DNA of 34,789 nucleotides from Treponema sp. (GTDB taxonomy: Bacteria; Spirochaetota; Spirochaetia; Treponematales; Breznakiellaceae), in NCBI GenBank assembly GCA_031279205.1, contig JAITIX010000052.1, positions 1-34,789 on the forward strand. The letters run 5' to 3'. A model generated the notes under the pieces. It did no database searches. It was given only the letters and a program-made list of their open reading frames with translations, and was not told where the DNA came from. The position numbers and the translations under genes were made by a program. Shown one piece after another: positions 4,682-24,607 of this stretch (positions are counted from its first letter, which is position 1; each line of letters begins with the position of its first letter).

Positions 4682-4865
4682 CGCTCGGATCAAAGTGTTT
4701 GATACGCTCGGATGAAGGTGTTTGATACGCGCGGCTCAAGGTGTGTGATACGCTCGGTTCAAAGTGTTGGATACGCTCGGATCTAGGTGTTTGATACGCT
4801 CGGATCAAGGTTTTTGATACGCTCGGATCAAAGTGTTTGATACGCTCGGATCAAGGTGTTTGATC
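4682..4865. repeat. Tandem array, eight copies of a 23-bp unit
   Basis: Eight consecutive units of 23 bp start with CGCTCGGATCAA and end with GTTTGATA, with one to four changes per copy. The last copy (4843-4865) overlaps the 3' coding end of comEC. Because 23 is not a multiple of three, the array is open in several minus-strand frames and reads as a 23-residue peptide repeat every three units. There are no spacers, so it is not CRISPR. Confidence 0.9.
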
Positions 4866-6259
4866 CGTCGGTGATATAAAAAGGCACAAAGCGCAACAAG
4901 GAGCGCGGACACGAGTAGAACTGGAAGCGGTGCGACGGGCAGGCCTGGGACGCGGGCTGCAAAGGTCGAAAGCGCGACGAGCGCGTTGTAGAGCAGGGAT
5001 AAGAGAGGCGCGACATTGCTCACCACGAGAAAAAGTATCGCCACGAGCATGAACGCCGTAGTGAGCGGGATCATGGCAAGGCTTGCAATGATACCGATGG
5101 GGCGTAGAACGCCGAAACAGGTGGACACGACAGTGGCGCTTGCGATAAACGCGCCCAAGGAGGCGGCAAGCGGCTTTGCCATAAGGTCGGGAAGCGAGCC
5201 GTGAATAAGCTCATAGAGGGGTTCGCCAATGAAGAGGATGCCGGCAAGTGCCAGATAGGACAGGATGAAAGACAGGGTATGAGCAGACTCCGGCTGGAGT
5301 ATGAGCTGTATCAGAAAACTCATGCCCAGGATCGACGCGCCCTGTTTAGGCAGGGAGGCAAGGAGCATAAGCGTTCTCAGCAGGTACATGATGGCGGCGC
5401 GATTCAGGGACGGCAGGTTTCCTACAAGGTATACATAAAGGAGAATGAGTGCAGAGCAGACAAGCGCAGACCGCCGCATCCCCAAGGGACGTCTCAGCAC
5501 AAAGGCAATGAGCGCGGTGATTATGCCAAGGTGCATACCGGACAGCGCCAGTATATGAGCGCAGCCCGCGTCCTGATACGCAGCGGCAAGCGAGGTAGCA
5601 AGCTCGTCCTTCACGCCCAGAAGCAAGGCGGCGGCAAGTCCGCCCCACTCAAAGCCACTGAACTGTTCTGTCAGCCGCGTGCGGACGCTCGTTCTTAGGC
5701 GTTCCAGAGCCGGTGCGTTCCGCACAACATGAACAGCGTACGCGCGAAACGTCTGCTTCCCCGCCCCGTCTTCAGCCGGCTGGAAGGTCCCTTCGACGTA
5801 TACCTCAGCGCCCCGACCAAAGCCTTTCACTCGCGGAATCGTTGTTGCTGGGAAAAACACCTGCACATTTCCTGACGCAGACGCGCTCAAGCCGTCAGAG
5901 CCAGACACCCGTTTGAGCGCGACAGAAGCCATGCCGCCGCCCTGGGTAAAACGGGGGTCATCGCGGAGTATTCCGCGCAGTCCCTTGATGTCTGTGCTTA
6001 TGGACAAGCCCAAGCGGGGTTTCACGCTCCCGGCAACATTAGCAGCAGCAAGCCCTATGCTCAGGCCGATTGCAAAGGCAATAATCAAGACCCTCACCAC
6101 GCGAAAGCTGTAGCGTAACCCAAGGTGTATAGGCATGTATGCAAGGGTCTGCATGAGGCTAACCACAACAACGCCGAAAGCCATGAGTGAAAACGTCATA
6201 CCGCTGTAATAAGCGAGTGCAGCGCCAAACGCGGCGCACAAAACCGGTGTCAATCCCAT
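4805..6259 (-). CDS. comEC: ComEC/Rec2 family DNA-uptake channel (no metallo-beta-lactamase domain)
   Basis: ComEC carries single-stranded DNA across the inner membrane during natural transformation. The N terminus has membrane segments and an OB-like soluble domain, followed by the competence domain with the family hallmark ALSGMHLGII and about eight further hydrophobic segments. At 484 aa it is the short form lacking the C-terminal beta-lactamase-like nuclease domain. The last ~20 residues are encoded by the 23-bp repeat array (HLDPSVSNTLIRAYQ), so the natural C terminus has probably been replaced or extended by repeat sequence. No other competence gene is nearby. Confidence 0.85.
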   Translation of the reverse strand: MGLTPVLCAAFGAALAYYSGMTFSLMAFGVVVVSLMQTLAYMPIHLGLRYSFRVVRVLIIAFAIGLSIGLAAANVAGSVKPRLGLSISTDIKGLRGILRDDPRFTQGGGMASVALKRVSGSDGLSASASGNVQVFFPATTIPRVKGFGRGAEVYVEGTFQPAEDGAGKQTFRAYAVHVVRNAPALERLRTSVRTRLTEQFSGFEWGGLAAALLLGVKDELATSLAAAYQDAGCAHILALSGMHLGIITALIAFVLRRPLGMRRSALVCSALILLYVYLVGNLPSLNRAAIMYLLRTLMLLASLPKQGASILGMSFLIQLILQPESAHTLSFILSYLALAGILFIGEPLYELIHGSLPDLMAKPLAASLGAFIASATVVSTCFGVLRPIGIIASLAMIPLTTAFMLVAILFLVVSNVAPLLSLLYNALVALSTFAARVPGLPVAPLPVLLVSALLVALCAFLYHRRIKHLDPSVSNTLIRAYQKP

Positions 6260-13750: not shown

Positions 13751-14443
13751 TTATGGCACTATTGTGTGAAACATCGGACACCACGGACCGTATTCTCCGG
13801 CTCCGTTTTCTATGCGTATGTCAAAATAAGCAGTCTTTCCGCTATCGTTAGAATTGAAGTTTACAATGTCCTTTCTCCGTTTGGTTGCGAATACTATCGG
13901 CAACTCTTCTGGGGTAATGGGAACTTTGAGCAAGTCCATTCCTGAGGATTCTATGCCGGGCGGCGGTAATACACCATAGCGCACTTGAAGCCTTATGTCC
14001 GTGCGGGGGTCTGCGAGGCTTTCCGTGCCTTCGGCGTATTTGTAATTGAGTATCAGCATCGCTGCGCCGCTTCTGCCGATTTCAGCGGTTTTTTGCGCCT
14101 TAGGCACTCCACGCGGACTGCGGGTCGTGTCTGGCACACTGAGCAGAAGGGCGGTAAAGTCCTCGTCCATCAGGGGCGGCTTTTTGAAGTAACGGTCTTT
14201 GATGAAACGCATTTTTTCCACCAAAGCGCCGAAAAGCCGCTGACATTCAGTGGTAATAGTGGACGTCCGGTCGCCTGAAAGAGCGATTTGTAATATCGCC
14301 TCAGCGTTTTGTATAGCGGTTCCAAATTCGCTCATAATGTCCGCGGGTATGCCCCAACCGGTTCCCCGGCTTTGTATGGTGTTTTTCCATACTTTAGCCA
14401 TGTTCAACTGCCCCTCACGGGTTCCTGGCATCCAATCTGCCAT
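13751..14443 (-). CDS. Helical/Ig-like protein of unknown function, paralogue of the gene at 23610-24278
   Basis: I cannot name this family. The first ~100 residues look helical. A KDRYFKKPPLMDEDFTALLL segment follows, and the C-terminal ~100 residues look like a beta-sandwich (Ig/Fn3-like), ending in a strand pattern (DIRIENGAGEYGPWCPMF) close to that of the 222-aa protein at 23610-24278. The two proteins align along their whole length by eye, so they are paralogues. The ATG is preceded by GAGGAGG. No signal peptide is seen. A structural or phage-tail-like role is conceivable but unsupported. Confidence 0.7.
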   Translation of the reverse strand: MADWMPGTREGQLNMAKVWKNTIQSRGTGWGIPADIMSEFGTAIQNAEAILQIALSGDRTSTITTECQRLFGALVEKMRFIKDRYFKKPPLMDEDFTALLLSVPDTTRSPRGVPKAQKTAEIGRSGAAMLILNYKYAEGTESLADPRTDIRLQVRYGVLPPPGIESSGMDLLKVPITPEELPIVFATKRRKDIVNFNSNDSGKTAYFDIRIENGAGEYGPWCPMFHTIVP

Positions 14444-14975: not shown

Positions 14976-15809
14976 CTAGGAGTGAGATGCGCTATCCACC
15001 ACCGGAGACACGGAATCCTCTATCTCTAGTTCAACTGTGTAGCCTTCATACTTTGCCATGAATATCTGTCTATTCGCCACCCTCGCGTATTTAAACAGCA
15101 GCTTAGTTCGTCTTTTTAGAGTGCTTAAGCCCATACGTTGTTCACTGGCAATGGCGGTATACTTTTTGCCCGCAAGAATCCCCTGCGCCATCGACACATC
15201 CTGACGCTTGAACTTGTCGCAGGGAAGCATGAGTTTCTTTTGGGACTGCAAAAGAGGAGTCGCTACAACTTCGATTTCATCAGTTTCACCGTGTTCTTTG
15301 TAGAGGTTTTGGAGCCTATGCCTGAGCAGGAATACACCCATGCCCACTATGAGGAAGACCACCGCCAAGTCTTGTAAGGTATTAAATAAAAGTTCTCCTC
15401 CATAGCGTATTTGTGAAAGCAGAACCGCGACTAAAACCACGGCTGACAGGGGAAGTTTCAGCTTCCAGCGTGTGGCAAAAAACCCTTTTTCTATCGCAAA
15501 AATCATGCCCAGACAGTACATCAGAAACCCCGGAACATTTCCGCCTTCTACCAAATGCACAATTCCCCAGATACAGCAGAAGAATGTGTAAATATAAAAC
15601 TGACACGGAAAAGCTATCAATACCCCACAGCCTACCAGAGTGCTTATATAGAGCAGTAGCATCATTGCTGGTGGTATTAAATCCTTTTCATTGAATTTAT
15701 AAGGAAGCAGAGCGTGTACGTAGAGGTTCCCTAGGGTTACAAACCCCCATACGATGAACGTAATGATTGCTATAATTCGCCAGCAAGTCCTCTCGTCTAC
15801 ATTTTTCAT
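14976..15809 (-). CDS. Membrane-anchored LuxR-type DNA-binding regulator
   Basis: About six hydrophobic helices fill residues 10-165. The C-terminal cytoplasmic part ends in a LuxR-type helix-turn-helix (about residues 200-255): DVSMAQGILAGKKYTAIASE, then LSTLKRRTKLLFKYARVANR, matching the family pattern of a scaffold helix, a turn, and a recognition helix ending in VxNR. Membrane-bound regulators of this build sense envelope or small-molecule signals; the ligand is unknown. It starts 2 bases after the stop of the frameshifted gene upstream and likely shares its promoter. Confidence 0.72.
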   Translation of the reverse strand: MKNVDERTCWRIIAIITFIVWGFVTLGNLYVHALLPYKFNEKDLIPPAMMLLLYISTLVGCGVLIAFPCQFYIYTFFCCIWGIVHLVEGGNVPGFLMYCLGMIFAIEKGFFATRWKLKLPLSAVVLVAVLLSQIRYGGELLFNTLQDLAVVFLIVGMGVFLLRHRLQNLYKEHGETDEIEVVATPLLQSQKKLMLPCDKFKRQDVSMAQGILAGKKYTAIASEQRMGLSTLKRRTKLLFKYARVANRQIFMAKYEGYTVELEIEDSVSPVVDSASHS

Positions 15810-16518: not shown

Positions 16519-16590
16519 TGAGACCAGTAAGACCGTGAGAGACTCTGTGAGACTTTTAGTGTGAGACCGTGATATGAGACCAAGTGAGAC
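16519..16590. repeat. Cluster of TGAGAC words upstream of the RiPP locus
   Basis: TGAGAC occurs at about 16519, 16548, 16562, 16575 and 16585, with a TGAGAG variant near 16536. The 325-base gap 16384-16710 has no gene. The cluster could be a set of regulator sites or a decayed tandem repeat. Confidence 0.55.
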
Positions 16591-16618
16591 TCAAAATATG
16601 CCAGTTTTTAAAAATTAG

Positions 16619-16710: not shown

Positions 16711-18036
16711 TTGTTAAAAGAATCAATGTACAATCACTACCTGCCTGAAAAGGGCTACACGCTCGTCTACAACCATTTGACAAACTCGATTGGTCGGATT
16801 ATGAACCAGGTGGAGCTTGCGAAGATTCAGCAGACCCTTGAGCAGGGTCAAATACCCGACAGTCCGCTCTTCGCCTGTCTTGTGCGGGACGGCTTCTTTG
16901 TTGATGATACGCGCGAGGAGGAGTACGCCGCTGAGGTTCGCTACACAAGCAGAAGGTATCACAGCGGCTTAGACGCGACCATTCTTGCGTCTGAGCAGTG
17001 CAACTTCCGCTGCGTCTATTGCTACGAGGAGTTTAAGCGGGGCAACATCAGTGAGGCAGTCATTAACGCCTTCATACGCTACATAAGGAAGAATCTGAGA
17101 AACTATACCAGTGTCTCGCTCGGTTGGTTTGGCGGGGAACCTCTGCTTGCCGCTAAAGAGATTGAGCGTATCTCAACAACGGTCATGGACATCTGTGCTC
17201 GCGCGCGCAAGCCCTTTACCGCAAGCATGACCAGCAATGGGTATCTGCTGGACGTCCCCATGATGGAGCGGATGCTGCGCTGCAAGGTGTCTCACTATCA
17301 GATTACGCTGGATGGTCTTGCTGAAAGCCATAACAAGACACGGGTTCTTGCCAATGGCGGATCCAGCTTTGAGCGAATCATCACCAACCTCAGAGCAATC
17401 CACGATCAGGTGAAGTCCCAGTTCTTTCAGATAGCAATACGTATGAATGTTACTAAATCCCAGATTCCGCTTATGCAAGAATACGCCGTGTTTATGGCTG
17501 CTGAATTCGGGCAAGACCCGCGCTTCAGCTTTCTGTTCCGTCCTGCTGGTGATTGGGGCGGTGAGCGAGTGCATAGCGTAAAGGATGAGCTGGTATCGTC
17601 ATTGGACGCTGTGTATGACACGCTGCTGCAAAGCGGGACAAAGCTGAACTATGACATCAATCTTGACCTGATGGGTAATTCTACTTGTTATGCTGCTGAC
17701 CGGAACTCTTTTATTCTGGGCAGCGACGGAACCATCTATAAATGCACGGTCAGGTTTGACCAGGAATATAACCGCCTTGGTCATATCAGTGAGAATGGAG
17801 ACCTGCTTATTGATTATACGAAGCTGGACCGCTGGCTTGTTCAGCCTGCACGAAAAACAGAAGGGTGCGCGGTGTGCGCGGTATGGGCGCTGTGCCGGAA
17901 CCGTACCTGTCCTGCGAAGACTTTTGACGTGGAAGGTCATGACGTGAAGCACTGCGGCTATGAACGCGAGTCCCTTGATCCTCTTATTAGGCTCATGGAC
18001 CGCTCGAATAGCGACTACATTACGGTATATGAGTGA
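16711..18036 (+). CDS. Radical SAM/SPASM peptide maturase
   Basis: This enzyme is expected to bind a [4Fe-4S] cluster, cleave SAM and make a radical crosslink in a peptide. With the TTG start at 16711 (6 bases after GGAGG at 16701-16705) it has 441 aa; the ATG at 16726 is too far from the ribosome site. The radical SAM motif CNFRCVYC has Cys97, Cys101 and Cys104; GGEP follows at about 141-144. A C-terminal SPASM-type region has Cys at about 345, 386, 389, 395, 400 and 415, enough for two auxiliary clusters. The first ~75 residues resemble the small precursor-binding domain found in such maturases. The carrier-protein gene follows after 7 bases and the Cys-rich precursors lie just beyond. Confidence 0.88.
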   Translation: MLKESMYNHYLPEKGYTLVYNHLTNSIGRIMNQVELAKIQQTLEQGQIPDSPLFACLVRDGFFVDDTREEEYAAEVRYTSRRYHSGLDATILASEQCNFRCVYCYEEFKRGNISEAVINAFIRYIRKNLRNYTSVSLGWFGGEPLLAAKEIERISTTVMDICARARKPFTASMTSNGYLLDVPMMERMLRCKVSHYQITLDGLAESHNKTRVLANGGSSFERIITNLRAIHDQVKSQFFQIAIRMNVTKSQIPLMQEYAVFMAAEFGQDPRFSFLFRPAGDWGGERVHSVKDELVSSLDAVYDTLLQSGTKLNYDINLDLMGNSTCYAADRNSFILGSDGTIYKCTVRFDQEYNRLGHISENGDLLIDYTKLDRWLVQPARKTEGCAVCAVWALCRNRTCPAKTFDVEGHDVKHCGYERESLDPLIRLMDRSNSDYITVYE

Positions 18037-18043
18037 GGCGGTC

Positions 18044-18301
18044 ATGAAAACTGGGGTTATAAAAGAAAAGGTACTTGGATGTCTTGAGAACCTTGGGATT
18101 TTCGCTGACGCAAATGAGAATTTTTTGCTCAATGAATACATAAGAGACTCAATGACCTATATGATGTTCCTTGTGGGTTTGGAAGAAGGTTTCAGCGTTG
18201 ATATTCCCGATGAGTATCTCAGCTCGGTAATCAGTCCTGAGCAAACGCTGGAAGGTCTATGCAACGCGCTGGAGACGCTAGTTGAGGCAAGGTCTCTGTA
18301 G
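18044..18301 (+). CDS. Acyl/peptidyl carrier protein
   Basis: Carrier proteins hold acyl or aminoacyl groups as thioesters on a phosphopantetheine arm. This 85-aa acidic protein has the attachment motif IRDSMTYMMFLVGLEEGF, with the serine at position 36, followed by the helix-III pattern DIPDEYLS and a final EQTLEGLCNALETL helix, as in acyl carrier proteins. I place the start at ATG 18044, preceded by GAGG; an ATG at 18029 is in frame but overlaps the radical SAM gene. It has no fatty-acid genes around it and sits inside the RiPP locus, so it is likely dedicated to peptide modification. Confidence 0.82.
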   Translation: MKTGVIKEKVLGCLENLGIFADANENFLLNEYIRDSMTYMMFLVGLEEGFSVDIPDEYLSSVISPEQTLEGLCNALETLVEARSL

Positions 18302-18421
18302 CGCGGCGTTTATTGTGGAAGAAGCACGCTGTCAGTGCAATTTTTCAGGGTTGTCTGGTGAATAGGTTCTGTTTTCAGGGCAATTCTTTTGTTAAGAAAT
18401 TTGATAAAAGGAGGAAAACTT

Positions 18422-18631
18422 ATGGAAAAGCCCGAGAAAAAGCCTTTGTACAAGCCGCAGGCGGACAGTGTAGACATCGACGTGAATATCTATGCCAATG
18501 AATCTTGCAAGAATCCGCCTAATAGAGTCTGTGTCGACTATGGCTGCATAGACCGTTTTAATGAAGTATGCATTAACAGGCGTCAAGGTTGTGGTTGTAC
18601 CTACAATAATAGCGTTGATTGTAGTTGCTAA
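18422..18631 (+). CDS. Cys-rich RiPP precursor peptide, copy A
   Basis: This 69-aa product has a strong AAAGGAGG ribosome site. The N-terminal part shared with copies B and C (KPLYKPQADSVDIDVNIY, then ANESC) is the presumed leader or recognition region. The C-terminal part carries eight Cys (positions 29, 37, 42, 50, 57, 59, 67 and 69), ending in CSC. There is no GG protease site. The core differs from copy C after the shared NRVC(V/I)DY segment. Its place right after the radical SAM and carrier genes makes it a likely substrate. The mature form is unknown. Confidence 0.75.
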   Translation: MEKPEKKPLYKPQADSVDIDVNIYANESCKNPPNRVCVDYGCIDRFNEVCINRRQGCGCTYNNSVDCSC

Positions 18632-18683
18632 AGATGCTTTCAACGAGTGTCTGTAAATTCCATTAGTGCGGTTCGGTGGATGT

Positions 18684-18709
18684 GTCTGGTGAATACCTAT
18701 TTACCAGAC
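18684..18709 (+). other. Conserved hairpin 1 of the precursor modules
   Basis: The arms GTCTGGTGAAT (18684-18694) and its near-complement (18699-18709) form 11 bp around a tetraloop, with G-T wobble. It lies directly before copy B. Compared with the copy-C hairpin, one C-G pair has become T-A on both sides, a compensatory change. Confidence 0.65.
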
Positions 18710-18717
18710 GTCTATAT

Positions 18718-18920
18718 ATGAAAAGACCGTTGTACAAGCCACAGACTGGCGATGTGGATATCAACGTGAATGTCTATAACAATCAATCTTGCAGGGGTTT
18801 GCGTGATAGAGTTTGTACTAACAATGATGTACAAACAATGCTTGTGACGGTTCGGCTCAATGGCCTATTTTTATTAACGATGTTTGTGAAAACACCAAGT
18901 GTGTAAACGACCATTGTTAA
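18718..18920 (+). pseudogene. Cys-rich RiPP precursor peptide, copy B (broken)
   Basis: The frame opens MKRPLYKPQTGDVDINVNVY and runs through QSC and RVCTNND, then goes out of frame. Read on, it gives a Leu/Val-rich tail ending at 18906. Adding one T near 18828 restores NDCTNNACDGSAQW and continues to CENTKCVNDHC and a stop at 18918-18920, matching copy C over its whole length. The AAAAGGAGG ribosome site present before A and C is missing; the ATG follows the hairpin closely. Two lesions in one copy suggest decay. Confidence 0.75.
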
Positions 18921-18963
18921 GCATCAGACTGGCACGGGACGGAAGCTTTGTTTCCGAAAGATT

Positions 18964-18991
18964 TGTCCGGTGAATATCCATTCGCCGGACA
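18964..18991 (+). other. Conserved hairpin 2 of the precursor modules
   Basis: Perfect arms of 12 bp (TGTCCGGTGAAT, 18964-18975, with 18980-18991, one G-T pair) enclose a tetraloop ATCC. It lies about 28 bases before the copy C start. It has no T-run after it, so it is more likely an RNA-processing or stability element than a terminator. Confidence 0.7.
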
Positions 18992-19019
18992 TATATACTA
19001 AGATAAAAGGAGGTAAAGC

Positions 19020-19223
19020 ATGAAAAAGGCTTTATACAAACCGCAGATGGACAGTGTAGACATCAGCGTGAATATCTATGCCAATGAATCTTGCAACAGG
19101 TCGCCTAATAGGGTCTGTATCGACTATAGCTGCACAGACAGTTCTTGTGATGGTTCGGCTGAATGGACTGTATTTCTAAATGACACTTGTGTAAACATCA
19201 CTTGTGTAAACGACCATTGCTAA
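19020..19223 (+). CDS. Cys-rich RiPP precursor peptide, copy C
   Basis: This 67-aa product starts MKKALYKPQMDSVDISVNIY and has a strong AAAAGGAGG ribosome site 5-6 bases before the ATG. Seven Cys lie at 25, 33, 38, 43, 57, 62 and 67, the last residue being Cys. Several are followed or preceded by Asp or Asn (CIDYSCTD, CDGS, VNDHC), which could suit thioether crosslinks to the alpha, beta or gamma carbon, as in sactipeptides and ranthipeptides. That link type is inference. The leader is nearly identical to copy A, while the core is a distinct product. Confidence 0.78.
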   Translation: MKKALYKPQMDSVDISVNIYANESCNRSPNRVCIDYSCTDSSCDGSAEWTVFLNDTCVNITCVNDHC

Positions 19224-19265
19224 CCAGCAGGTTGACGCGAGTGGAACCTTTGTTTTTGCGGGATA

Positions 19266-19293
19266 TGTCCGGTGAATGCTAGTTCGCCGGACA
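19266..19293 (+). other. Conserved hairpin 3 of the precursor modules
   Basis: Arms of 11 bp (TGTCCGGTGAA, 19266-19276, with 19283-19293) enclose a six-base loop. It lies after copy C and about 35 bases before the 357-aa gene, and is followed by CTTTATT. It may reduce read-through into the downstream genes so that precursors outnumber enzymes. Confidence 0.65.
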
Positions 19294-19327
19294 CTTTATT
19301 AAGGTAATTTTATTTAGGAGAAGAACT

Positions 19328-20401
19328 ATGAAACAGCTACCGATTGAACTCAATCCATCAATAACATCTGAATGTTGGACGTATGACAGACTGTGTATTA
19401 TTGAGACTGATCCAGCCAGTCCGGAATGGGTTGCCAGTCATTATAGTGTATTTATGCATTGGGAGGGGCAAATACATTTCGGCGATGGAATGAATAGCTA
19501 TTCAATGAGCTATTATGATGATATTCTGGAACATCAGTGTGTCCCGATAGAACAATACAGGTCTCAAGAACTGATAAGACATTTTGAGCAGTGGATAGAT
19601 GAAGGGTACTATGTTATTGTTGATATGAATCTTGGAGACCTGATTAAGGGATATAAGAATTTCAAGGTACATGAGATACTCCTGTATGGTTATGATGAGC
19701 AAAGGCGTGTTTTTTATAGCCCGCTGCAAAATGAAAAAACAGGGCAGTTTGAATCCTTTGAGTTGGAATATGACGTTATACCGCCGGCTATAGAAAGCGC
19801 TATCGCATATTATCGGGAAAAGCCTAATGAGCGCCTTTGGCATTTTTATAATTTCTTTTATCCACTTACCAAGCTAAAAATCAGGCAAACATATAATGAT
19901 GACAATATGTTTATATTGAAGGCGCTCAAGAAGCTAGAGGTTGAGTGTAACAGTTATTGTCATGAGATTGGTATATACAAACAAACGCAGGAATTAGATT
20001 GTAAATTCATCAACTATACTGGTTTAGGGTGTCTTATCGGGATGAAAGAAATTCTTAACGGTATACTAGAAGATAATGATCAATCATCTAAGGGTCAAGA
20101 TAATGTTGATAAACTTTTTAAGTTATATGAACATCGCTGTATCATGCGTTCCATGCTTGAGCTGTTGCGGGAAAAATTGGGTATAGACAATGAGGCGTAC
20201 AAGAGCGCCTTTGAAACCTATTGTTCTGACATAGCGAGTATGCGGGAATGTTATTTGCTTATGGAAAAGGCTCGCATAAGCGGCAAGCTGAACTCGTTGC
20301 CCGGAATTATACAACGTCTGGACACTATTTATGAAAACGACTATGACTCGCTGCGTGTCATAGACGGTATAGCGAGGGAAAAGATGAGCGAAAGGCTCTG
20401 A
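19328..20401 (+). CDS. BtrH/papain-like family protein of the RiPP locus
   Basis: I assign only a tentative family. Residues ~90-135 (GYYVIVDMNLGDLIKGYKNF, then VHEILLYGYDEQRRVFYSP) have the strand-helix pattern of BtrH N-terminal and C39/papain-like proteins, with candidate Asp99 and His115; a Cys at position 16 (SECWTYD) could be the nucleophile. BtrH transfers an acyl group from a carrier protein in butirosin synthesis, which would fit the carrier protein two genes upstream. The C-terminal half (~200-357) is helical and unrecognised. AGGAG precedes the ATG. It might instead be the leader peptidase. Confidence 0.55.
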   Translation: MKQLPIELNPSITSECWTYDRLCIIETDPASPEWVASHYSVFMHWEGQIHFGDGMNSYSMSYYDDILEHQCVPIEQYRSQELIRHFEQWIDEGYYVIVDMNLGDLIKGYKNFKVHEILLYGYDEQRRVFYSPLQNEKTGQFESFELEYDVIPPAIESAIAYYREKPNERLWHFYNFFYPLTKLKIRQTYNDDNMFILKALKKLEVECNSYCHEIGIYKQTQELDCKFINYTGLGCLIGMKEILNGILEDNDQSSKGQDNVDKLFKLYEHRCIMRSMLELLREKLGIDNEAYKSAFETYCSDIASMRECYLLMEKARISGKLNSLPGIIQRLDTIYENDYDSLRVIDGIAREKMSERL

Positions 20402-20490
20402 GAATTTTGGAATAAACGTGCTGTTAGCGCGATTTCTCAGAGCAAGCCAGCAGGTAGCTCTATTGTAAACTAAAGGAGTTGGACTATTAT

Positions 20491-22293
20491 ATGAAGAACA
20501 AGGTAGGCAAGCATTGGTTTATTGGACTGAGCTACATGGTGAAGGTCTATTGGAAATATCACAAGCCAACGCTGTTTTATCAAGTAATAGTCTGCGTATT
20601 GGAAGGCGTTCTGCCCTTTGCAGGTATTGTGTTTCCCAAGTATATCATTGATGAATTGACCGGCGCTCATGACATCAGTCGCATTGTCTTCTTTGTTACA
20701 GTCCTGCTCCTGTGCAGTCTCTTTGGTAATACGTTCATCGGCTTTGTTCAGGCGCGGCGCGAAATGGGGCAGGCGCGTATCTACAATGGCTGGGTAATGG
20801 ACTTGATCAGGCGTCTGTATGAGGCTGACCTTGAGCGGCTTGAGGCTTCGTCGTTTTTAGACCTGCAATCCAGGGCATACAAGTTTCTGGAGGCTGACGG
20901 CTATGGTTTTGGCGCAGTGCTGGGAAAAACCGCAGATATAGCCGGTCGGATTATCACCCTCGTTGGCATCATCTCCATTATTTCACTTCTTAACCCCTTG
21001 GTTGTGCTGGTTTTCATTGGTTTAGTGATTATCACTACCCTATTCAACTCACAAAACAAGAAAGTCAGCGTTGAATTACAAATGGGACTGCCGCCGGTTC
21101 AAAGAAGGAGTAGTTATTATAGCAATCTGTTTTCCAATAATCTTTATGCAAAAGAATTGCGCATCAACGACATGGGCGCGTGGGGCTTAAAAAAGGTCAA
21201 TGAGTATGTAGGGCTTTTCTATGATTTCACCAAAAAATGGTGGGCTAATAATCTGAAGGCACAAATGTTTGGCAATGGTGTTGCGTTTATCCAGCAGGGC
21301 GTGGCTTACGCCTATCTGGTCTATGGCGTGATAAACGGACAGTTCGGCATAGGCAGTTTCACCATGTACCTTGCGGCGATCAACGCCTTCTCAGGCTCGA
21401 TGAACGCGGTTATGAATAACATTATTGACATACGCCGCTACAGCGATTATTACGACGCGGTGGACGAGTTTATGAACATGCCAAAGCGTCAGCGGGAGGG
21501 CAAGCAGGCGCTGACGCTCGCCACAGCGCCTGCGCTGGAATTCCGCGACGTGTCGTTCCGCTATCCGGGACAGGAAGCGTTCACCCTCAAGCATATCAAC
21601 ATTGTTATTCCGGCTGGTCAAAAATTATCGGTGGTTGGCGAAAACGGCGCGGGAAAAACCACGTTCACCAAGCTGCTCATGCGCCTCTATCGCCCCACAG
21701 AGGGCGTCATTCTCTTAAACGGCGTTGATATTCAGGAGTATGACTTTGACGATTACGAGAGAAATTTCTCAGTGGTGTTTCAGGATTTCGTCTTATTTGC
21801 CGCGTCTCTGCGGGAGAATGTAACGGCGGGACATGATGTGGATGACGCGAAAGCCATAGACGCGCTGCGGCGGAGCGGGTTTTCAGATAAGCTAGACCGG
21901 CTTGAAAAGGGACTTGATACGCCTATTTACAAAATACTGGACGAAAGCGGCTTTGAGCCCTCAGGCGGGGAAGGGCAGAAAATTGTTATGGCGCGCGCGC
22001 TCTTAAAAGACGCGCCGGTCGTCATACTGGACGAGCCAACCGCGGCGCTTGATCCACGGGCTGAATATGAAATCTACATGCACTTCAACAACATGGTGGC
22101 GGGCAAGACCGCGGTGTTTATCTCGCACCGGCTTTCCAGCGCCCAGTTTTGCGACAAAATAGCCGTGTTCAAAAACGGGGAAATCGTGGAACACGGCTCC
22201 CACACAGAACTCGTGAGCCGCGGCGGGCTGTATCACGAGCTGTTTAGTATGCAGGCGCAATTCTACGGGGAACAGGATGCGGAAAAGCATTAA
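20491..22293 (+). CDS. ABC exporter (fused membrane and ATPase domains)
   Basis: This 600-aa protein has about six membrane helices in residues 15-310 and an ATPase from about 345. Walker A is GENGAGKTT near 383, the signature is the unusual PSGGEGQ near 490, Walker B is VVILDEPTAALD near 510, and the H-loop reads FISHR. It has no N-terminal C39 peptidase, so it would export an already-processed peptide or leave the leader to be cut by another enzyme. The start is ATG 20491; the TTG at 20479 lies only 2 bases after AAGGAG and is less likely. It closes the RiPP locus and is probably the product exporter. Confidence 0.86.
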   Translation: MKNKVGKHWFIGLSYMVKVYWKYHKPTLFYQVIVCVLEGVLPFAGIVFPKYIIDELTGAHDISRIVFFVTVLLLCSLFGNTFIGFVQARREMGQARIYNGWVMDLIRRLYEADLERLEASSFLDLQSRAYKFLEADGYGFGAVLGKTADIAGRIITLVGIISIISLLNPLVVLVFIGLVIITTLFNSQNKKVSVELQMGLPPVQRRSSYYSNLFSNNLYAKELRINDMGAWGLKKVNEYVGLFYDFTKKWWANNLKAQMFGNGVAFIQQGVAYAYLVYGVINGQFGIGSFTMYLAAINAFSGSMNAVMNNIIDIRRYSDYYDAVDEFMNMPKRQREGKQALTLATAPALEFRDVSFRYPGQEAFTLKHINIVIPAGQKLSVVGENGAGKTTFTKLLMRLYRPTEGVILLNGVDIQEYDFDDYERNFSVVFQDFVLFAASLRENVTAGHDVDDAKAIDALRRSGFSDKLDRLEKGLDTPIYKILDESGFEPSGGEGQKIVMARALLKDAPVVILDEPTAALDPRAEYEIYMHFNNMVAGKTAVFISHRLSSAQFCDKIAVFKNGEIVEHGSHTELVSRGGLYHELFSMQAQFYGEQDAEKH

Positions 22294-22332
22294 GATCGCG
22301 CTTTTAGACGCAGCCCTAGGGCGTTGGCTCGT

Positions 22333-22367
22333 CAGCCCCTGGGATATTCCATGGCCTAGCGGGGCTG
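22333..22367. terminator. Hairpin after the RiPP locus
   Basis: CAGCCCC (22333-22339) pairs with GGGGCTG (22361-22367), with a short inner TGG/CCA stem. It lies 40 bases after the exporter stop and is probably where the transcript ends, although no T-run follows. Confidence 0.4.
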
Positions 22368-22432
22368 GAGTATCCATAGCCCGGCGCACAAGCCCGACGC
22401 GGTTTTTCGCAGCATTTACCGAATAACTCTAA

Positions 22433-23368
22433 TTAAAGCCCTATTTCATACCGTAACTCTTTTAGATTCTTTTCAGCTGAATATAAATCACCAAGTGTTT
22501 CATTTGAGATAAATTTATATCTGCTGGCAATATCATAAAAAGATGCCAATACTTGTTTATATTTTCTTGAATCATTAGCAATTATAAACAAGCCAACATT
22601 CGCATAATCAATTAGTGTCGCCATGCGCCCAACTCCACTCCATACACCTGTAGATAATTCAACCTCAAATGCGTATTCAGGGATATAGCGGTCTCCCTTT
22701 AACCTAAACCATAGCACATCTATTTCACGCAAAAGTTTATAATCCGAAAATTGCAACTGAGGACAAGTATATAATGTTGCTATATTCTCTAGTTTCTTAT
22801 TATTGAATACCTTAGATTTATTTGGACAATACGTTTGATACCCACGAATATTGCCTATTTCGTGGAGGCGCCCCTGCAAAATAGAATGCAGGTTCTCTTC
22901 AACCGTGTTGCGGCCTTTCAAACTTATTTTTTGCGGGCTAAACAGCGAAGCCCATGCGTTATAAAAACCAGCACAACCAAGCCGGTTGTTTTTTCCGGCT
23001 AAAACCAAGTTAAAGTCTTTATCAAAAACTATTTTGTATTCACCATTTCTGTCATGACTTATCTGTGATAAATGAGCGAATAATATTTGTGCAGGCATAA
23101 TAACAACAGAATCAATCGAACCGCAGATGAAAGCGATAAACGGGTTGTCCAGATTGACAAGTTCTTCTATATGCAGATAGTTGACACCATAGAAAAAACG
23201 GCGATTTGCTCCTTCCGTTGCGACGCGAATGAGAACATTTGCTCCTCCTATATGATAAGTACGCGATTTTAAGACTTTTATTAGTTCAATATTATCAGAT
23301 AAAAATCGCGCCCGTTCTAAAAAAAGCGATGCCAATTTTTCAGAGGTTGTTTGTATTTTATTTGCCAT
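22433..23368 (-). CDS. Putative PD-(D/E)XK-type nuclease
   Basis: Nothing in the first ~195 residues is recognised beyond mixed alpha/beta character. Residues ~215-265 show IDVLWFRLKGDRYIPEYAFE followed by VELSTGV, an acidic Asp strand and a FEVE strand, the arrangement of PD-(D/E)XK nucleases (Asp in IDVLW, the ExE pair in FEVE). Many restriction enzymes and defence nucleases carry this core; no methyltransferase is in the window. The DNA is AT-rich compared with its neighbours, which suggests transfer. Its function is unproven. Confidence 0.5.
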   Translation of the reverse strand: MANKIQTTSEKLASLFLERARFLSDNIELIKVLKSRTYHIGGANVLIRVATEGANRRFFYGVNYLHIEELVNLDNPFIAFICGSIDSVVIMPAQILFAHLSQISHDRNGEYKIVFDKDFNLVLAGKNNRLGCAGFYNAWASLFSPQKISLKGRNTVEENLHSILQGRLHEIGNIRGYQTYCPNKSKVFNNKKLENIATLYTCPQLQFSDYKLLREIDVLWFRLKGDRYIPEYAFEVELSTGVWSGVGRMATLIDYANVGLFIIANDSRKYKQVLASFYDIASRYKFISNETLGDLYSAEKNLKELRYEIGL

Positions 23369-24396: not shown

Positions 24397-24607
24397 GGTA
24401 GGGAGCCGCTCATTACTGGTAGGGAGCTACTCATTACCGGTAGGGAGCCGCTCATTACCGGTAGGGAGCCGCTCATTACCGGTAGGGAGCCGCTCATTAC
24501 CGGTAGGGAGCCGCTCATTACCGGTAGGGAGCTACTCACATTACTGGTAGGGAGCTACTCATTACTGGTAGGGAGCTACTCATTACTGGTAGGGAGACAC
24601 TCACCGC
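24397..24607. repeat. Tandem array, ten copies of a 21-bp unit
   Basis: Units read GGTAGGGAGCCGCTCATTACC with C/T and G/A variants; the seventh has two extra bases, which break the reading frame. They read as a heptapeptide (SLPVMSG) on the minus strand but no credible gene uses them. Together with the array that follows, they fill most of the 690-base gap 24279-24965. Confidence 0.9.

What the first reader, a model, noticed from the sequence alone, without database searches (positions are those of the whole stretch)
16711..22293. Compact, apparently undescribed RiPP locus: radical SAM, carrier protein, three Cys-rich peptides, BtrH-like protein, exporter
Seen: six adjacent plus-strand genes with small gaps, three of them tandem small Cys-rich ORFs sharing a leader. 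Known: radical SAM/SPASM maturases crosslink Cys-rich peptides. A dedicated phosphopantetheine carrier protein inside such a locus is not standard for sactipeptide or ranthipeptide systems. Inference: the peptide may be crosslinked and acylated before export.
Basis: partly seen in the sequence, partly recalled or inferred. Interest (0 to 1): 0.85.

Follow-up and report, generated by a model that had tools for sequence, protein, structure and literature searches.

The report
Crosslinked-peptide cassette with true carrier protein
A gut spirochaete (Treponema relative) carries a gene cassette that probably staples small cysteine-rich peptides into many tiny rings and then attaches a group handed over by its own carrier protein; the general kind of cassette is known, but this version, with a working-looking carrier and a matching transfer enzyme, appears undescribed.

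Summary
The locus is real: radical SAM/SPASM enzyme (16711-18036), carrier protein (18029-18301), Cys-rich precursors (18422-18631; 18718-18920, frameshifted; 19020-19223), BtrH-like protein (19328-20401), ABC exporter (20491-22293). The neighbourhood is conserved: a paralogue in the same genome, same-family genomes, and Firmicutes and Spirochaetota. The general cassette (rSAM + TIGR04066 + 'acyl carrier-related' TIGR04069 + subtilase + ABC + Cys-rich peptide) is already published (Roseburia; SacP23 of Paenibacillus), so 'undescribed' is only partly right. This branch differs in three ways. The phosphopantetheine serine is invariant in 15/15 carriers, but present in only 1/5 canonical TIGR04069 proteins sampled. 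A BtrH-like protein, whose model matches carrier-dependent enzymes (CcbD, CtaG, AziU3), occurs only in loci with such carriers (6/10 versus 0/66). The precursors carry repeated [Asp/Asn]-x-x-Cys motifs (64/100 Cys, 22 expected). Best reading: the rSAM makes NxxC-type thioether rings, and the BtrH-like enzyme transfers a carrier-bound group onto the peptide, before leader removal and export. Crosslinking is well motivated; acylation is plausible but unproven. Here the locus has lost its protease gene and one precursor is broken.

The parts
16711..18036 (+). Radical SAM/SPASM peptide maturase (441 aa from TTG 16711)
   Evidence: CxxxCxxC at C92/C96/C99 and seven SPASM-type Cys (321,340,381,384,390,395,410, numbered from Met at 16726), invariant in 6 relatives; NCBIfam best TIGR04463 2e-48 but 165 of 525 bits; PF04055
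18029..18301 (+). Carrier protein (ACP-like, 90 aa), phosphopantetheine serine S41
   Evidence: Aligns to solved ACPs with S41 on the DSL serine; AlphaFold four-helix ACP fold, pLDDT 83, S41 at start of helix II, PDB matches nearly all ACP/PCP though weak in E-value; S41 invariant in 15/15 homologues
18422..18631 (+). Precursor peptide 1 (69 aa)
   Evidence: shared leader; 5 of 8 Cys in [DN]xxC
18718..18920 (+). Precursor peptide 2, frameshifted (ORF ends 18906; Cys-rich tail continues in next frame to 18920)
   Evidence: one-base gap against peptide 3 and the L009 orthologue
19020..19223 (+). Precursor peptide 3 (67 aa); all 7 Cys preceded by Asp/Asn at -3
19328..20401 (+). BtrH-like papain-fold protein (357 aa), candidate carrier-dependent acyl/amide transferase; C16 and H115
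20491..22293 (+). ABC exporter (permease-ATPase, no C39 peptidase)
   Evidence: PF00005 8e-28, MsbA-like
22277..22312 (+). Truncated 5' end of S8 subtilase/TIGR04066 gene (MRKSIKIALLDA)
   Evidence: matches start of the 613-630 aa S8 proteins in L008/L009/L011; those carry S8 triad motifs, and the L009 one a TIGR04066/DUF1611 domain
18684..18709 (+). Intergenic hairpin upstream of peptide 2
   Evidence: 11-12 bp stem, 2-4 nt loop
18965..18990 (+). Intergenic hairpin between peptides 2 and 3
   Evidence: same element in L009 and L013
19267..19292 (+). Intergenic hairpin between peptide 3 and BtrH-like gene
16519..16592 (+). Cluster of six GAGAC repeats upstream of the rSAM gene, possible regulatory region
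   Evidence: six copies also upstream of the orthologue in L009, none in L008/L010

Best explanation
This is a RiPP cassette of the rSAM / carrier / subtilase-TIGR04066 / ABC kind, in a branch whose carrier protein looks functional. Proposed pathway. (1) Precursors with a KPQ...VxVNxYxNE leader bind the rSAM/SPASM enzyme, which joins each Cys thiol to the side chain (probably beta carbon) of the Asp/Asn three residues earlier, giving several four-residue thioether rings (ranthipeptide, NxxC type). (2) The carrier receives phosphopantetheine from the genome's PPTase and carries an acyl or aminoacyl group of unknown identity. (3) The BtrH-like protein, using Cys16 and His115, transfers that group to an amine or hydroxyl of the peptide. 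(4) An S8 protease fused to TIGR04066 cuts the leader and the ABC protein exports the product. Shown: gene content, conservation, folds, invariant serine, motif enrichment. Inferred: crosslink chemistry, acylation, order of steps. In this genome the protease must act in trans from the paralogous locus, or the window locus is decaying.
For: [DN]xxC: 64 of 100 Cys in 17 Treponema precursors versus 22.1 expected in shuffles (p<=0.0003, the floor of 3000 shuffles); 12/32 versus 6.3 in Firmicutes relatives (p=0.007); absent from four CcpM-type precursors. NxxcA has one Cbeta thioether Cys23-Asn20, and freyrasin has six Cys-Asp Cbeta thioethers (PMC8326336). SPASM cysteines invariant. ACP serine invariant 15/15 versus 1/5 canonical TIGR04069 (Fisher p=0.001). 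ACP fold. BtrH-like: top full-length PDB matches AziU3/U2, CcbD (complexes with a PCP domain) and CtaG; VIA Z 10.5-12.9 over 258-286 residues. Aligned ends put C16 at or near CtaG C11 and CcbD C19, the residues mutated in those entries. BtrH-like found in 6/10 distant loci with the carrier versus 0/66 without (p about 1e-6; 5/9 without L020, p=7e-6). PPTase in genome. S8-TIGR04066 intact in paralogue.
Against: No acyl-activating enzyme in the locus, so the loaded group is unknown. The BtrH-like model has moderate confidence (pLDDT 64.6) and its N-terminal region is poor; the window protein itself has no Pfam hit. C16 is kept in Treponema and perhaps L020, but not in Tumebacillus and Lachnospiraceae homologues, so catalysis is not universal. 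Four loci with carrier serine show no BtrH-like protein (L025 and L042 have transglutaminase-like proteins, L056 none, L023 truncated), nor does L012. L012 precursors favour Asp/Asn at -4, not -3. The window locus lacks the protease and has one broken precursor.
Confidence: 0.5

Rival explanations
1. Crosslinked RiPP without acylation: the carrier-like and BtrH-like proteins are recognition or scaffolding partners (for example presenting the precursor to the rSAM), as may hold for the canonical CcpM cassettes where the carrier-like protein has lost its serine.
For: Four of five canonical TIGR04069 proteins lack the serine yet stay in the cassette, so the fold can be kept without carrier chemistry; no acyl-activating enzyme in the locus; C16 not conserved in several BtrH-like homologues.
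Against: Serine invariant in 15/15 carriers of this branch across two phyla at 22-40% identity among the distant members, and the BtrH-like protein tracks it.
Confidence: 0.3
2. The BtrH-like protein is a papain/C39-like leader protease (or product hydrolase) rather than a transferase; the carrier serves another step.
For: One relative (L024) scores weakly against Peptidase_C39_2 (0.032); the window locus has lost its subtilase and its ABC protein has no C39 domain.
Against: Paralogues and relatives keep both a subtilase with intact triad motifs and the BtrH-like protein; the best full-length PDB matches are carrier-dependent enzymes, not proteases.
Confidence: 0.1
3. The window locus is a non-functional relic: a deletion removed the subtilase and a frameshift broke peptide 2; only the paralogous locus on contig C45 is active.
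For: Truncated S8 gene, frameshift, and other deletion derivatives in relatives: leader fused to BtrH-like in L010, leader fused to the S8/TIGR04066 C-terminus in L013.
Against: rSAM, carrier, peptides 1 and 3, BtrH-like and ABC reading frames are intact with invariant catalytic residues; a trans-acting protease exists; MAG assembly or base errors are possible.
Confidence: 0.25

Closest known systems
CcpM / TIGR04066-TIGR04068-TIGR04069 peptide maturation cassette (Roseburia intestinalis L1-82, PMC4573289; SacP23 of Paenibacillus polymyxa, PMC10731318)
   Same: rSAM, TIGR04066 protein, acyl-carrier-related protein, subtilase, ABC transporter and Cys-rich precursor together
   Different: rSAM is a separate clade (split from CcpM at 100 SH-aLRT); carrier keeps its serine; subtilase fused to TIGR04066; BtrH-like protein added; precursors with [DN]xxC arrays
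NxxcA/NxxcB ranthipeptide (Streptococcus orisratti)
   Same: Asn-x-x-Cys spacing, rSAM enzyme
   Different: one ring there, five to seven motifs here; no carrier protein mentioned with it in the review passages read
Freyrasin / PapB
   Same: multiple Cys; distant rSAM relative (NF047865 3e-34)
   Different: acceptor Asp lies after Cys (C-x3-D, from memory) rather than before it; PapB far below cut-off; the 66 relatives without a carrier gene next to the rSAM include the Paenibacillus loci
BtrH, CcbD, CtaG (carrier-dependent papain-fold acyl/amide-forming enzymes; functions from memory and PDB titles)
   Same: fold, probable Cys/His, co-occurrence with a carrier protein
   Different: those act on aminoglycoside, lincosamide and nonribosomal substrates; here the acceptor would be a ribosomal peptide
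Goadvionin-type lipopeptide RiPPs (from memory)
   Same: carrier-bound acyl group joined to a RiPP
   Different: uses a GNAT-type transferase and a PKS; none here

Membership tests
NCBIfam TIGR04463 (rSAM versus C-rich peptide) | whole-protein score above curated cut-off 525 | tested here: not met
   165 bits, E 2e-48: distant relative only
NCBIfam TIGR04068 CcpM cassette | rSAM above 500 bits | tested here: not met
   81 bits; separate clade in tree
NCBIfam TIGR04069 acyl carrier-related protein | score above 70 bits | tested here: not met
   not listed for the window protein; distant carriers in the same branch score only about 18-28 bits
CcpM-type peptide maturation cassette (gene content) | rSAM + TIGR04066 + carrier-like + subtilase + ABC + Cys-rich peptide | tested here: met
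   all present in L009 with TIGR04066 fused to S8, and homologous S8 proteins in L008, L011; in the window itself the S8/TIGR04066 gene is truncated
Functional acyl/peptidyl carrier proteins | four-helix fold with phosphopantetheine Ser at start of helix II | tested here: met
   the window protein is not listed against PF00550
Functional acyl/peptidyl carrier proteins | phosphopantetheinylation and acyl loading | not testable with these tools
   needs biochemistry; PPTase is present
BtrH_N (PF14399) | Pfam gathering score | tested here: not met
   no hit for the window protein; 6 of 9 relatives hit at E<=1, best 2.6e-5; L020 homologue 20.6 of 29.7 bits
BtrH/CcbD/CtaG-like papain fold | overall fold with catalytic Cys and His | tested here: inconclusive
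   fold matches full-length, Z 10.5-12.9; C16/H115 positions agree but model pLDDT 64.6 and N-terminal region poor; Asp third member not identified
Ranthipeptides (radical non-alpha thioether) | rSAM with SPASM domain and Cys-rich core | tested here: met
Ranthipeptides (radical non-alpha thioether) | Cys linked to beta or gamma carbon of acceptor | not testable with these tools
   needs MS/NMR; only the [DN]xxC motif supports it
Sactipeptides | Cys to alpha-carbon thioether | not testable with these tools
   cannot be excluded from sequence

The most novel reading that the evidence does not exclude
A hybrid pathway in which an rSAM enzyme makes repeated Asn/Asp-to-Cys thioether rings and a BtrH/CtaG-type enzyme then transfers an acyl or aminoacyl group from a dedicated phosphopantetheine carrier onto the same ribosomal peptide. 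Canonical CcpM cassettes would be the derived form, where the carrier has become a serine-less scaffold.
Probability: 0.4. Interest if true: 0.8.

Novelty: new variant of a known kind. Interest (0 to 1): 0.62.

Why it matters
A carrier-like protein has been noted in rSAM Cys-rich peptide cassettes for over a decade without an established role in the papers found. This branch separates two cases by sequence (serine kept, usually with a BtrH-like partner; serine mostly lost, without one), which makes the role of the carrier directly testable. If the acyl transfer is real, it joins thiotemplate chemistry (carrier-bound thioesters, papain-fold condensing enzymes) to rSAM-crosslinked ribosomal peptides, in an anaerobic gut lineage where such peptides appear little studied.

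Tried and rejected
Known NCBIfam precursor families for the peptides: no hits above noise (FlmA 0.12 only). Sequence-only search of PDB with the BtrH-like profile: no meaningful match, so the relation rests on Pfam sub-threshold hits and fold. Loss of the subtilase by a dispersed repeat: the junction stretch 22308-22432 is single-copy in the genome. Reading +2 Asp/Asn enrichment as a second acceptor: set aside, because it probably follows from regular Cys spacing. Literature: no PMC paper found on this branch; searches covered open-licence papers only, and searches for CtaG and CcbD/BtrH papers gave nothing useful. The ACP Foldseek hits have E>0.05; they are taken as support because nearly all are ACP/PCP, not for their E-values. 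The rSAM tree is a quick one with several long branches; single versus multiple origin of the carrier association is not settled.
Full report
Observation. The stated genes are there, in order and on one strand. The rSAM gene starts at TTG 16711 behind GGAGG, in line with relatives (MKRLKESMYNHCLP...). The carrier gene overlaps its stop (ATGAGTGA at 18029). Three peptide ORFs share a leader; the second is frameshifted by a missing base relative to peptide 3 and to a same-genus orthologue. A 357-aa protein and a 600-aa ABC exporter follow.

Family assignment of single proteins. The rSAM resembles TIGR04463, Clo7bot, CefB and PapB maturases but is far below all cut-offs. Its CxxxCxxC motif and seven SPASM-type cysteines are invariant in six relatives. 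The carrier aligns to solved ACPs with S41 on the phosphopantetheine serine; its model is a four-helix ACP with S41 at the start of helix II, and its PDB matches are nearly all ACPs or PCPs. The 357-aa protein has no Pfam hit alone, but 6 of 9 relatives match BtrH_N weakly.

Conservation. The same genome has a second, 70%-identical system on contig C45. Three same-genus genomes and one of another genus in the family have it too; the named records behind four of these loci are Treponema and Spirochaetaceae MAGs, and the sample labels look like a termite-gut series (from memory). Among 80 relatives fetched from named genomes, ten beyond the Spirochaetaceae loci just named have a carrier gene directly behind the rSAM: L018, L019, L020, L022, L023, L024, L025, L042, L056, L092. 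Eight of the ten also have the S8 protein; L018 and L023 sit on short contigs. In L009 the S8 protein is fused to a TIGR04066 / DUF1611-type P-loop domain, and all four Spirochaetaceae S8 proteins checked have intact S8 motifs.

What is already known. TIGR04066, TIGR04068 and TIGR04069 are NCBIfam models of a peptide maturation system. Such a cluster with subtilase and ABC transporter was reported in Roseburia intestinalis L1-82 (PMC4573289), and with a Cys-rich precursor in Paenibacillus polymyxa as SacP23 (PMC10731318). I fetched five canonical examples. They share most or all of the gene set, and some share a similar leader (for example NNVSVYANGPC), but none has a BtrH-like gene.

What is different here. 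First, the carrier serine: 15 of 15 carriers of this branch keep it at 22-82% identity to the window protein, while the aligned residue in the five canonical TIGR04069 proteins is S, P, A, A, P. Second, the BtrH-like protein: an iterated profile finds it in L018, L019, L022, L024 and L092, and L020 has one by Pfam (5.5e-4). That is 6 of 10 distant loci with the carrier and 0 of 66 without. L025 and L042 have a transglutaminase-like protein instead. Third, the precursors: 17 Treponema peptides have a constant leader and variable cores in which 64 of 100 cysteines are preceded at -3 by Asp or Asn, against 22 expected (peptide 2 was counted with its tail read in the next frame). In peptide 3 all seven cysteines follow this rule. 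The motif is also enriched in the Firmicutes set (12/32 versus 6.3). In L012 the preferred position is -4, and four CcpM-type precursors show no preference.

Mechanism. NxxcA carries a Cbeta thioether from Cys23 to Asn20, and freyrasin carries six Cys-Asp Cbeta thioethers (PMC8326336). The [DN]xxC arrays therefore suggest a series of four-residue thioether rings made by the rSAM; this is an inference by analogy. The BtrH-like model (pLDDT 64.6) matches AziU3/U2, CcbD and CtaG over most of its length (Foldseek E 7e-5 to 2e-3; VIA Z 10.5-12.9). CcbD was crystallised with a PCP domain, as the entry title states. The aligned ends (model residue 8 with CtaG 3 and CcbD 11) would place C16 on CtaG C11 and CcbD C19 if no gap intervenes, which the tool output does not show. 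H115 is invariant. With the genome's PPTase, and a fatty-acid-type ACP encoded separately, a route from loaded carrier to peptide is coherent. What group is loaded, and where it goes, is unknown; no activating enzyme is in the locus. An A-PCP-C NRPS module lies near the PPTase on contig C82, but nothing links it to this locus.

State of the locus. In this genome the protease gene is truncated and one precursor is broken, so processing must use the paralogue's S8 protein or the locus is decaying. L010 and L013 show other deletions in the same system. MAG sequence errors cannot be excluded.

Small features. The three intergenic gaps after the first peptide gene each hold a GTCCGGTGAAT-type hairpin with 11-12 bp stem; the three copies differ in stem letters but keep pairing, and the element recurs in L009 and L013. 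It may act in mRNA processing or attenuation to set the peptide-to-enzyme ratio (inference). Six GAGAC repeats precede the rSAM gene here and in L009.

Verdict. Real, conserved, a new variant of a known kind of cassette.

Noticed in passing
G000:C45 (L008:4682-12220): Complete paralogous cassette in the same genome with three further precursors, intact S8-TIGR04066 protein, ABC, BtrH-like and carrier.
   Followed up: yes
L010:10843-12045 and L013:1416-1883: Deletion derivatives: a precursor leader fused in frame to the BtrH-like protein (L010) and to the C-terminal part of the S8-TIGR04066 protein (L013).
   Followed up: partly
window 18684-18709, 18965-18990, 19267-19292; L009 8162, 8480, 8775; L013 1366: Recurrent intergenic hairpin GTCCGGTGAAT-N-ATTCGCCGGAC around precursor genes.
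   Followed up: partly
G000:C82 (L116:4780-5496, L116:10549-13788): Phosphopantetheinyl transferase and a single A-PCP-C NRPS protein on one contig; no other link to the locus.
   Followed up: partly
window 24397-24603 and 4682-4871: Tandem repeats of 21 and 23 bp units; ORFs with similar short repeats of other sequence appear in L009, L011 and L012.
   Followed up: no
L018 (Streptococcaceae MAG Ehx436): rSAM is sister to the Spirochaetaceae clade (97 SH-aLRT) and 40% identical; possible transfer between gut residents.
   Followed up: no
L012:4114-6295 (minus strand): Seven or more precursors with leader MEKxKLAKPQSxETxENAAVYAC and Asn/Asp at -4 rather than -3 of Cys: different ring size predicted.
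   Followed up: partly
window 22433-23368, 13751-14443, 14976-15809: Flanking minus-strand proteins without any Pfam match.
   Followed up: no
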